This document shows, piece after piece, positions 3,523 to 5,297 of a stretch of 8,445 bases of DNA. The notes beneath the pieces are model-generated. The model searched no databases. It saw only the letters and a program-made list of their open reading frames with translations, and was not told the origin of the DNA. The DNA lies in assembly GCA_946886435.1 (NCBI GenBank), contig CAMPIR010000031.1:1-8445 (forward strand), in the 5' to 3' direction. The stretch comes from an uncultured Candidatus Saccharibacteria bacterium (GTDB lineage Bacteria; Patescibacteria; Saccharimonadia; Saccharimonadales; UBA5946). The position numbers and the translations under genes were made by a program. Within the stretch, counting starts at the first letter, position 1. Every line of letters begins with the position of its first letter.

Positions 3523-4962
3523 ATGGAAAAACAGGGAGACCTACAGGCCGAGAGAGATATGGCGAATGGGCTGTTTGCATGGCTACAAATCTCTAGTGAT
3601 GAGCTTTCTCCTCCACCCAATGACCGCACAAAACAGCTACTGTCAGACCTGTCGCTGACAGCTGAGGATTTGCCGCAGCTTCGAATGATAATAAATAGCC
3701 TCGAGACGCCATACGCCTTACCGTTGAGACTGCACCTTTCAGGTTTCGAAGAGCTTGTTATTAAGCAGTTGGACCACGAAGGGGTTCTCGATAGCGCCCT
3801 ATCCGAATTTAGGGGCGTGTGTCAAGAAACCATCAGCCGACCAGCGGCCGTAGCGACGCCAGCAGCCGCCCAGAAGAGGCGAGGCTCGAGTGGATCCCGT
3901 AAAGCCGTGGAGCCATCACGCAAGCGACCAGCGCTCGCGGACGCAAACCCAACTGATCTAGATATTGTTGAGCTGAGTGAACACGAGCACTATGAAGAAG
4001 TTACTGAGGCGGATATCGAGAAGCTTGCTGAAACGCGACTAGATTCTGATCTCGTGAAACAGTATCTGCGCGAGATCGGAAAGTTCAAGTTGCTGGATGC
4101 TGAGCAGGAGGTGATGCTTAGTAAGGGGATTGAGGCAGGGCTTTTTGCACAGGAGCGTCTCGATACATACGCCAGTGTCCTGTCCGAAGAAGATCAGGAG
4201 GAGCTCGAAGTGCTTGCGCGGCTCGGCAGGCAGTACAAAGAAACGCTCATCAACAGCAACCTTCGTCTCGTCGTTTCAATCACGAAGCGATACGTAGGGA
4301 GGGGGATGCATTTTCTCGATCTAATCCAAGAGGGTAACGCTGGCTTGGTTCGTGCTGTTGAGAAGTTTGACTATACGATGGGAAATAAGTTCTCGACTTA
4401 TGCAACCTGGTGGATACGACAAGCTGCGACACGCGCGCTCGCTGACCGTTCCCGAACTGTCCGCCTTCCGGTTCATGTGGTTGAGGTTGTTAATAAAATT
4501 GCGCGATTCGAGGCGCAGTTTCAGGTCGATACCGGGCGCGAACCAACTCACGCTGAGATTGCACGCGAGCTTGCTATCGATGAAGATAAAGTTCTCGAGA
4601 TTAAAAAAGCCGCACGTCCTCCTGTGAGTATTCATATGCCAGTCGGAGATAGCGATTCGGAATTCGGTGACCTCATAGAGGATGCCGACCAAGAGACGAA
4701 CGTGATAGACCACGTTTTGCAAGGAGAGCTCGGCGACAAGTTGAACATGGTGCTGGACACGCTATCTGAGCGCGAGGCGTTAGTCCTCTGCATGCGATTT
4801 GGCCTTCTTGATGGCGAGAAAAAGTCACTTGAGGAGATTGGCAAGAGAATTGGTTTGACTAAAGAGCGTGTACGCCAAATAGAAGCCAAGACGCTCTCGA
4901 AACTTAGGCATCCTTCTCGGTCTCATCTCCTCGTGGGCTTACGGGGCAGGGGTGTTGCATGA
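3523..4962 (+). CDS. Second sigma-70 factor, actinobacterial SigA/SigB-like, 479 aa, with an extra N-terminal domain
   Basis: This is a promoter-recognition subunit of RNA polymerase. Residues 1-100 form a helical domain I do not recognise, followed by an Ala/Arg/Lys-rich linker (106-140) and an acidic stretch (143-172). Region 1.2 is SDLVKQYLREIGKFKLLD (175-192). An insert, GIEAGLFAQERLDTYASV through about 238, resembles that of actinobacterial primary sigmas. Region 2 is about 239-310 with TYATWWIRQAATRALAD; Q300 and T303 are kept. H318 and E321 are retained in region 3.0. Region 4 is about 403-467, with LDTLSEREA, the helix-turn-helix SLEEIGKRIGLTKERVRQIEAKTLSKL and the canonical LRHPSRS (461-467). 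After it the usual acidic tail is replaced by HLLVGLRGRGVA. All core regions are intact, so it should be active. The start is ATG 3523 with only a weak AGG upstream; ATG 3559 (codon 13), preceded by GAGAGAG, is an alternative. WhiB is encoded 44 nt downstream. Confidence 0.93.
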   Translation: MEKQGDLQAERDMANGLFAWLQISSDELSPPPNDRTKQLLSDLSLTAEDLPQLRMIINSLETPYALPLRLHLSGFEELVIKQLDHEGVLDSALSEFRGVCQETISRPAAVATPAAAQKRRGSSGSRKAVEPSRKRPALADANPTDLDIVELSEHEHYEEVTEADIEKLAETRLDSDLVKQYLREIGKFKLLDAEQEVMLSKGIEAGLFAQERLDTYASVLSEEDQEELEVLARLGRQYKETLINSNLRLVVSITKRYVGRGMHFLDLIQEGNAGLVRAVEKFDYTMGNKFSTYATWWIRQAATRALADRSRTVRLPVHVVEVVNKIARFEAQFQVDTGREPTHAEIARELAIDEDKVLEIKKAARPPVSIHMPVGDSDSEFGDLIEDADQETNVIDHVLQGELGDKLNMVLDTLSEREALVLCMRFGLLDGEKKSLEEIGKRIGLTKERVRQIEAKTLSKLRHPSRSHLLVGLRGRGVA

Positions 4963-5006
4963 TGCTTATGCTTGCACTTTCTAGCCTCTGTTGAGACGAT
5001 AAAAAT

Positions 5007-5297
5007 ATGAATGAGCGTGGCGGTTACGACAAAGTGGTTGATTGGCGACATCGAGCCGCCTGCATCGGTGAAGACCCGGAACTATTTTTTCCGATCGGTA
5101 GCACTGGCCCCGCAATGCTGCAGACCGAAGAAGCGAAACAGGTTTGCAGGAGATGTGAGGTGCGAGAACAGTGTCTCGAATGGGCGCTTGAAAACAGGTT
5201 GGATCATGGGGTCTGGGGCGGGCTTAGCGAAGATGAGCGCCGTGCCCTGAAACGTCGAAATCAGCGAATCCGCAATATCGGCAAATCAGCGATCTGA
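5007..5297 (+). CDS. whiB1: WhiB-family iron-sulfur transcription factor, WhiB1-like, 96 aa
   Basis: WhiB proteins carry a 4Fe-4S cluster, bind region 4 of the primary sigma factor in RNA polymerase, and respond to nitric oxide or oxygen. All hallmarks are seen: four cysteines, C19, C47, C50 and C56 (C-x2-C-x5-C); DWRHRAAC (12-19); DPELFFP (23-29); GVWGG (68-72), the turn that supports sigma binding; and a basic C-terminal tail ALKRRNQR (80-87) for DNA contact. Recalled from memory, Mycobacterium WhiB1 is very similar along most of its length, including the sigma-contacting Trp (W13 here) and two Phe (F27, F28). The start ATG 5007 gives about ten residues more than WhiB1; GTG 5034 would shorten it. 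GAGA (4993-4996) is a weak ribosome site. It lies 44 nt after the second sigma gene and 19 nt before polA. The family is considered essentially restricted to Actinobacteria and their phages, so presence in another phylum would imply transfer. Confidence 0.93.
   Translation: MNERGGYDKVVDWRHRAACIGEDPELFFPIGSTGPAMLQTEEAKQVCRRCEVREQCLEWALENRLDHGVWGGLSEDERRALKRRNQRIRNIGKSAI

What the first reader, a model, noticed from the sequence alone, without database searches (positions are those of the whole stretch)
3523..5297. Second sigma factor and WhiB1-like protein encoded side by side, with the WhiB-binding sigma ending kept only in this sigma
In Mycobacterium, WhiB1 clamps region 4 of SigA through an aromatic pocket (W3, F17, F18) and the sigma residues His-Pro of LRHPSRS (recalled structural work). 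Here WhiB has W13, F27 and F28 and the GVWGG turn. The adjacent sigma has LRHPSRS (461-467), while the operonic primary sigma reads LRKHKDAKK at that place. The window thus appears to encode a private pair in which WhiB can grip the second sigma and not the first. That would be a clean way to split one RNA polymerase pool into a redox/NO-responsive branch. HPSRS is also widespread in bacteria lacking WhiB, so its presence alone proves nothing; the contrast between the two sigmas is the point.
Basis: partly seen in the sequence, partly recalled or inferred. Interest (0 to 1): 0.78.

Follow-up and report, generated by a model that had tools for sequence, protein, structure and literature searches.

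The report
Imported actinobacterial sigma factor and WhiB pair
A bacterium that appears not to be an actinobacterium carries, next to its own main promoter-reading protein, a second one of actinobacterial origin together with WhiB, an actinobacterial iron-sulfur regulator; only the borrowed reader has the hook that WhiB grips, so the two look like a private switch.

Summary
Sigma2 (3523-4962) ends SKLRHPSRS (459-467). WhiB (5007-5297) has four Cys, W13, F27, F28, W70. RpoD1 reads TKLRKHKDA at the same ungapped place. New here: (1) sigma2 groups with SigA of Actinomycetota (100/100); placing it outside them is rejected (AU p 0.0002, groups chosen after the first tree). RpoD1 groups with Bacillota/Pseudomonadota RpoD (100/96, long branch). 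So sigma2 is an import into a probably non-actinobacterial genome. (2) WhiB scores as WhiB1 class; two papers (passages seen) call the family exclusive to Actinobacteria. (3) In 12 diverged sigma2-family proteins the eight dock residues are the longest invariant run of the core; 0 of 300 random draws from either control set match, though the controls are more alike overall. (4) In Actinomycetota the dock's His-Pro is missing in 10 of 27 genomes without WhiB and 2 of 32 with it. (5) No SigA-grade sigma lies near whiB in 80 actinobacterial or 80 viral loci. Best reading: an imported sigma-A/WhiB1 module in which WhiB docks on sigma2, not RpoD1. Binding, signal, organism (Saccharibacteria suspected from recall) and whiB linkage in relatives are not shown. 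New variant of a known kind.

The parts
3523..4962 (+). sigma2: sigma-70 factor of actinobacterial SigA descent, with a family-specific N-terminal helical domain (about residues 1-105) and no region 1.1 match
   Evidence: Pfam regions 1.2-4, no PF03979 match; PDB best HrdB 369.9 bits against 289.2 for Staphylococcus SigA; trees and AU tests; AlphaFold helices 2-103, ten-residue pLDDT means 68-89
4897..4920 (+). WhiB dock of sigma2, residues 459-466 SKLRHPSR (H463-P464 correspond to sigma-A H516-P517)
   Evidence: position; invariant in all 12 members examined; H516A abolishes the WhiB3 complex (passage)
5007..5297 (+). whiB: 96-aa WhiB1-class iron-sulfur protein
   Evidence: PF02467 96.7 bits; PDB bits: WhiB1 119, Streptomyces WhiB 72, WhiB3 58, WhiB4 47, WhiB7 31; residues; weakly supported tree
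429..1526 (+). RpoD1: the genome's own primary-type sigma (true start uncertain; the listed GTG start overlaps dnaG), with the dock replaced by TKLRKHKD (349-356)
   Evidence: TIGR02393 RpoD_Cterm 367.7 bits, cut-off 354; in a 10-row set at 100/96 with Bacillota and Pseudomonadota RpoD; unresolved
2156..3514 (+). orf452: protein of unknown function 8 nt upstream of sigma2
   Evidence: 8 database hits, one of them its own near-identical entry; five of the other seven have the same longest-contig length as a sigma2 relative (5305, 27920, 6370, 7977, 32313); no credible Pfam match
5317..7842 (+). polA (DNA polymerase I with 5'-3' exonuclease domains), 19 nt after whiB: chromosomal housekeeping setting

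Best explanation
A bacterium that is most likely not an actinobacterium acquired an actinobacterial SigA-type sigma factor and a WhiB1-type iron-sulfur protein and now encodes them side by side between orf452 and polA. WhiB docks on region 4 of sigma2 through H463-P464 and its own W13/F27/F28/W70 pocket. It cannot dock in the same way on RpoD1, where these positions are Lys-His. Both sigmas keep nearly the same core-promoter reading residues, so the difference between the two holoenzymes would be mainly whether WhiB rides on them: RpoD1 holoenzyme runs the basal programme, and sigma2 holoenzyme is the one whose output WhiB modulates according to the state of its cluster (redox, oxygen or NO). 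Shown: descent of sigma2, class of WhiB, presence and loss of dock residues, constraint on the dock, adjacency. Inferred: binding, selectivity, signal, target promoters, and co-transfer as one event.
For: Sigma2 lies with SigA of Actinomycetota (30 rows at 100/100, 10 of them its own family) and RpoD1 with Bacillota/Pseudomonadota RpoD (10 rows at 100/96). Holding sigma2's family outside 34 SigA rows of the actinobacterial group is rejected, p 0.0002; outside 25 rows, p 0.0019. WhiB is closest to WhiB1. The eight dock residues are invariant in 12 sigma2-family proteins (mean identity 0.62) and form the longest invariant run of residues 174-470; 0 of 300 draws of 12 from 27 WhiB-less genomes (mean identity 0.72) and 0 of 300 from 32 WhiB-bearing genomes (0.65) reach this. 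P0009 keeps FSKLRHPSR although its -35 recognition helix has decayed. His-Pro is kept in the best-scoring sigma of 30 of 32 WhiB-bearing and 17 of 27 WhiB-less Actinomycetota genomes, Fisher p 0.0074. The -10 and most -35 reading residues are shared by both sigmas (their roles recalled). H516A, and Ala at the WhiB3 counterparts of F17, F18 and W60, each abolish a WhiB:sigma complex (passage).
Against: No binding was computed or measured. HPSRS occurs in primary sigmas of bacteria without WhiB, so keeping it does not prove a WhiB role. The AU groups were chosen after the tree was seen; of the 34 rows 24 are of known Actinomycetota origin, 8 are unnamed proteins and 2 are viral-collection contigs. 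Nested in or sister to 18 actinomycete-type rows is unresolved (constrained tree 13.4 log units better, p 0.71). A joint clade of sigma2's family with RpoD1 is disfavoured but not rejected at 0.05 (p 0.069). RpoD1 has a long branch, is unresolved and placed only, from which I had dropped 16 fast or odd rows. Sigma2 scores below NCBIfam cut-offs for SigA/RpoD models. Control genomes are related to one another, so the Fisher p and the draws are too optimistic; other sigmas of the WhiB-less genomes were not examined. R515, conserved in RpoD1 as Arg, matters for WhiB7 (passage), so some contacts remain in RpoD1.
Confidence: 0.6

Rival explanations
1. Plain retention: sigma2 keeps HPSRS because its SigA ancestor had it and RNA polymerase or other activators need it; RpoD1 lost it by drift; the adjacency to whiB is a by-product of co-transfer.
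For: HPSRS is kept in E. coli and Bacillota RpoDs, groups not known to carry WhiB (recalled; among 14 control genomes only Corynebacterium glutamicum has a Whib match), and His-Pro in 17 of 27 WhiB-less Actinomycetota genomes.
Against: The dock is more constrained in the fast-diverging sigma2 family than in either control set and than the -35 recognition helix of the same proteins. A general need for HPSRS does not fit its absence from RpoD1 of the same cell.
Confidence: 0.22
2. WhiB acts apart from sigma2: it binds both sigmas through contacts other than His-Pro, or works as a DNA-binding or thiol-redox protein.
For: R352 of RpoD1 matches sigma-A R515, which WhiB7 needs (passage); the WhiB tail is basic, 8 Arg/Lys in its last 24 residues.
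Against: H516A alone abolished the WhiB3 complex while R515H did not, in pull-downs (passage).
Confidence: 0.12
3. Sigma2 is an in-genome duplicate of RpoD1 that converged on SigA.
For: The AU test does not quite reject one clade of sigma2's family with RpoD1 (p 0.069).
Against: Trees; PDB scores of opposite sense for the two sigmas; exclusion from the actinobacterial SigA group rejected.
Confidence: 0.03
4. Artefact: a chimeric contig that joins actinobacterial DNA to another genome, or a viral contig.
For: Only one window is in hand; no whole genome is held.
Against: The WhiB cluster lies on 205 contigs, the longest 43,099 bases; GC is even over all genes, 0.52-0.56; orf452 and sigma2 relatives recur with equal contig lengths; pattern scans of the viral contigs found no relative of sigma2 or orf452.
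Confidence: 0.03

Closest known systems
WhiB1:sigma-A region 4 complex of Mycobacterium (PDB 6ono, 6onu)
   Same: WhiB1-class protein with the four Cys and the aromatic residues; sigma with S512-R515-H516-P517 equivalents S459-R462-H463-P464
   Different: There the partner is the principal sigma; here it is a second sigma beside an RpoD that lacks the dock, the two genes are adjacent, and the genome appears not to be actinobacterial
Group 2 sigma factors (second, RpoD-like sigmas)
   Same: A second sigma with RpoD-like promoter-reading regions and no region 1.1 match
   Different: It does not group with the short second sigmas of Actinomycetota in the tree (L123-L126) but with SigA, and has its own N-terminal domain
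whiB1 near a SigF-type stress sigma in Nocardioidaceae and kin
   Same: A sigma gene near whiB1: 35 of 80 loci, 24 within 1 kb
   Different: That sigma is at most 37% identical to sigma2 or RpoD1; the two examined are SigB/SigF/SigG type
WhiB proteins of actinobacteriophages
   Same: WhiB moved out of the host's own regulator set (start of abstract, and passages, of PMC8612146)
   Different: None of 80 viral whiB loci carries a match to sigma2, RpoD1, dnaG, coaE or orf452 at E 1e-5

Membership tests
WhiB-like (Wbl) family, WhiB1 class | Pfam Whib over gathering cut-off | tested here: met
   96.7 bits, cut-off 23.6
WhiB-like (Wbl) family, WhiB1 class | Four cluster cysteines C-X(n)-C-X2-C-X5-C and the GVWGG turn | tested here: met
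   C19, C47, C50, C56; GVWGG 68-72
WhiB-like (Wbl) family, WhiB1 class | Closest to WhiB1 among Wbl classes | tested here: met
   PDB bits 119 against 72 or less; the tree agrees but has 76 columns and weak support
WhiB-like (Wbl) family, WhiB1 class | Bound [4Fe-4S] cluster and NO or redox response | not testable with these tools
   Needs protein
WhiB-like (Wbl) family, WhiB1 class | Docks on sigma region 4 | not testable with these tools
   Residues W13, F27, F28, W70 present; the predictor takes one chain
Actinobacterial SigA (group 1 sigma) | Descent from within Actinomycetota SigA | tested here: met
   AU p 0.0002 and 0.0019 against exclusion, groups named after the first tree; 30 rows 100/100; exact place unresolved
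Actinobacterial SigA (group 1 sigma) | NCBIfam curated cut-off of SigA/RpoD models | tested here: not met
   NF004561 446.8 against 582; RpoD_Cterm 312.1 against 354
Actinobacterial SigA (group 1 sigma) | Is the cell's primary sigma | tested here: inconclusive
   RpoD1 meets the RpoD_Cterm cut-off and follows the dnaG-like frame (typical setting recalled); no genetics and no whole genome
RpoD (the genome's own primary sigma) | RpoD_Cterm over cut-off | tested here: met
   367.7 against 354
RpoD (the genome's own primary sigma) | Non-actinobacterial descent | tested here: met
   10 rows 100/96, with a long branch; unresolved
Saccharibacteria (suspected source) | Phylum-level placement of the window | not tested
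   No genome of the lineage could be reached; the suspicion rests on recalled gene content. Sigma2 and whiB end in TGA

The most novel reading that the evidence does not exclude
The lineage is an ultrasmall epibiont of actinomycetes (Saccharibacteria or kin) that captured the sigma-A/WhiB1 switch of the very cells it lives on. Its own RpoD lacks the WhiB dock, so the regulator could only be taken over together with its sigma. The module splits the epibiont's single RNA polymerase pool into a basal branch and a branch that reads host-derived redox or NO state in the host's own regulatory language; the bolder form is that sigma2 or WhiB also engages actinobacterial RNA polymerase.
Probability: 0.25. 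Interest if true: 0.87.

Novelty: new variant of a known kind. Interest (0 to 1): 0.7.

Why it matters
WhiB proteins are described as exclusive to Actinobacteria (passages of PMC3905903 and PMC8612146). A WhiB1 carried by what looks like another lineage, together with an actinobacterial sigma, where the native sigma lacks the dock, is a natural experiment. It asks whether WhiB works only through its sigma partner, and it separates the dock from the cell's main sigma, which is hard to do in actinobacteria, where the partner is the principal sigma. It also offers a simple mechanism by which a foreign regulator becomes usable: import its docking sigma with it.

Tried and rejected
Tried without result: finding the window's genome or kin; sigma2 and orf452 in viral contigs by pattern scan (none). 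RpoD1 in viral contigs gave ten contigs with RpoD relatives 45-61% identical and no other window gene (ORFs listed for two); PolA gave eight at 28-33%. RpoD1 in plasmid records and PolA in phage records gave no taxon hint. A scan with orf452 would have served the taxon question better.

Sigma2's N-terminal domain was not folded alone, so no statement on its fold; the sigma2 model is weak as a whole (pTM 0.37).

Papers: WhiB with Saccharibacteria, 3 papers; WhiB with Patescibacteria, 3; RpoD with Saccharibacteria, 3; further listings. I saw no report of WhiB in such bacteria there. Of the papers only PMC12369343 was opened for passages (WhiB of the actinobacterial host); the rest are judged by title and start of abstract. 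PMC11665869, a Patescibacteria paper, holds neither 'sigma' nor 'WhiB' in its main text (find). The library holds open-licence papers only. The WhiB1:sigma-A structure paper is not held and is recalled.

Full report
What is there. The 8,445-base window carries, on the + strand, the end of a dnaG-like gene (name from position and recall; no Pfam or NCBIfam match), a primary-type sigma gene (RpoD1), a kinase gene of the AAA/adenylate-kinase type (called coaE-like here), orf452, a second sigma gene (sigma2), whiB, polA and the start of an unknown gene. The gaps orf452-sigma2, sigma2-whiB and whiB-polA are 8, 44 and 19 nt, and GC is even over all genes at 0.52-0.56. A consensus scan found no promoter-like site on the + strand anywhere in the window, which says little about a lineage of unknown promoters.

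WhiB. The protein scores 96.7 bits against a Pfam cut-off of 23.6. Against solved structures it scores 119 bits with WhiB1, 72 with Streptomyces WhiB, 58 with WhiB3, 47 with WhiB4 and 31 with WhiB7. It has the four cysteines and the counterparts of W3, F17, F18 and W60. The 80 best relatives in the species-genome collection are all actinobacterial by record title, 65-84% identical (582 relatives were found, 80 kept). Among 14 control genomes only Corynebacterium glutamicum has a Whib match. The WhiB tree has 76 columns and weak support; it puts the window protein with the WhiB1-like set, near several unnamed 91-98 aa relatives.

Two sigmas of different descent. Sigma2 scores 369.9 bits with Streptomyces HrdB and 289.2 with Staphylococcus SigA; RpoD1 shows the reverse, 368.1 with the same Staphylococcus SigA and 325.8 with Streptomyces SigA (organisms). 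In the first tree (93 rows, dock columns left out) sigma2 and 11 relatives sit among actinomycete SigA, and RpoD1 is unresolved. In a second tree without 16 fast or odd rows (77 rows, dock columns included) sigma2 lies with actinomycete SigA, 30 rows at 100/100 of which 10 are its own family, and RpoD1, on a long branch, with six named Bacillota or Pseudomonadota RpoDs and three viral-collection contigs, 10 rows at 100/96. AU tests on the first tree, with groups I chose after seeing it, reject the exclusion of sigma2's family from 34 (p 0.0002) and 25 (p 0.0019) SigA rows; of the 34, 24 are of known Actinomycetota origin, 8 are unnamed proteins and 2 viral-collection contigs, and two rows (L118, L138) are one gene fetched twice. 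The tests do not decide between nested in and sister to 18 actinomycete-type rows: the constrained tree was 13.4 log units better, p 0.71. A joint clade with RpoD1 is 38.6 log units worse, p 0.069. I conclude that sigma2 came from Actinomycetota, that the exact donor is unknown, and that the genome is most likely not actinobacterial.

The dock. In PMC10245118 (passages only), Ala at the WhiB3 counterparts of WhiB1 F17, F18 or W60, or at H516 of sigma-A, abolishes the WhiB3:sigma complex; S512 and R515 take part in polar contacts; R515H does not abolish it in pull-downs; and Ala at the counterpart of W3 alone does not either. PMC3905903 (passages) reports that R515H abolishes WhiB7 binding. Sigma2 has S459, R462, H463 and P464 at these places; RpoD1 has T349, R352, K353 and H354. 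Among sigma2 and 11 relatives (P0002-P0011, P0015), 74 of 297 core columns are invariant, and SKLRHPSR (459-466) is the longest run, 8 residues. In 300 random draws of 12 from 27 WhiB-less Actinomycetota genomes the mean number of invariant dock columns is 1.1, and from 32 WhiB-bearing genomes 4.6; no draw reaches 8, although the controls are more alike overall (0.72 and 0.65 against 0.62 mean identity). Each control set holds the best-scoring sigma of each genome, which may be a second sigma in some. Neither set is corrected for kinship.

WhiB and dock across Actinomycetota. Of 60 genomes, 33 have a Whib match. In the best-scoring sigma, His-Pro is kept in 30 of 32 WhiB-bearing genomes (G029 was not fetched) and 17 of 27 WhiB-less ones; Fisher p 0.0074, not corrected for kinship. 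In the two WhiB-bearing exceptions (QP for HP) a second sigma of the same genome reads LRHPS; second sigmas of the WhiB-less genomes were not examined. So loss of the dock goes mostly with absence of WhiB, and RpoD1 resembles those losers.

Adjacency. Of 80 actinobacterial whiB loci, 67 with 4 kb or more on both sides, 35 have a sigma-70 hit, 24 within 1 kb, but at most 37% identical to sigma2 or RpoD1; the two examined are SigB/SigF/SigG type. Of 80 viral whiB loci none has a hit to sigma2, RpoD1, orf452, dnaG or coaE, one has a polA hit. A SigA-type sigma beside whiB was therefore seen only in this window. The window's own WhiB cluster lies on 205 contigs, which speaks against an assembly error.

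Mechanism. The -10 reading segment and most of the -35 helix are alike in both sigmas; sigma2 and 7 of its 11 relatives have Lys for E. coli R584 (roles of these residues recalled). Both would read similar promoters, which makes a regulator that sits on only one of them an effective way to split the pool. This is inference; nothing here shows binding, cluster, signal or targets. The region 1.1 model did not match sigma2; before region 1.2 lies a helical domain predicted with fair local confidence, by eye repeated in P0009 and replaced by another sequence in P0007 and P0008.

Organism. No genome of the lineage could be reached. An orf452 relative lies on a 937,155-base contig, compatible with a small genome. 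From recalled gene content I suspect Saccharibacteria; this is a lead, not a result.

Verdict. A well-supported import of an actinobacterial sigma with a WhiB1 protein beside it, with strong constraint on the WhiB dock. The private-pair mechanism is likely but untested.

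Noticed in passing
window 2156-3514: orf452 belongs to a small family without credible Pfam match; the search gave 8 hits, one its own near-identical entry, and 5 of the other 7 share contig lengths with sigma2 relatives. Possibly a functional partner of sigma2.
   Followed up: partly
window 3523-3837 (sigma2 residues about 1-105): Family-specific N-terminal helical domain before region 1.2; by eye repeated in P0009, followed by an extra insert in P0006, replaced by a different sequence in P0007 and P0008.
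   Followed up: partly
L134, L137, L135, L136, L191, L192, L194-L197: Best-scoring sigmas of ten WhiB-less Actinomycetota genomes lack the His-Pro of region 4.2 in several different ways (RRKEI, REQRR, KSYRE, RAYRD, KQLPE, QSLAE).
   Followed up: yes
L009 6342-7355 and 8004-8252, and 23 further loci: whiB lies within 1 kb of an alternative sigma gene in Nocardioidaceae and kin; the two sigmas examined are SigB/SigF/SigG type.
   Followed up: partly
P0009 (593 aa): A sigma2 relative whose -35 recognition helix is degenerate (KEQTVRHTE for TRERIRQIE) but whose WhiB dock is intact.
   Followed up: no
window 429-540: The start of RpoD1 is uncertain: the listed GTG start overlaps the dnaG-like frame by 104 bases.
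   Followed up: no
window 7851-8445: Partial gene of unknown function after polA, no Pfam or NCBIfam match.
   Followed up: no
L083: A viral-collection contig that by eye carries bacterial dnaG and rpoD beside an integrase-like gene and phage-like genes: perhaps a provirus edge in an actinobacterium; its sigma is identical over the core to that of G043.
   Followed up: no
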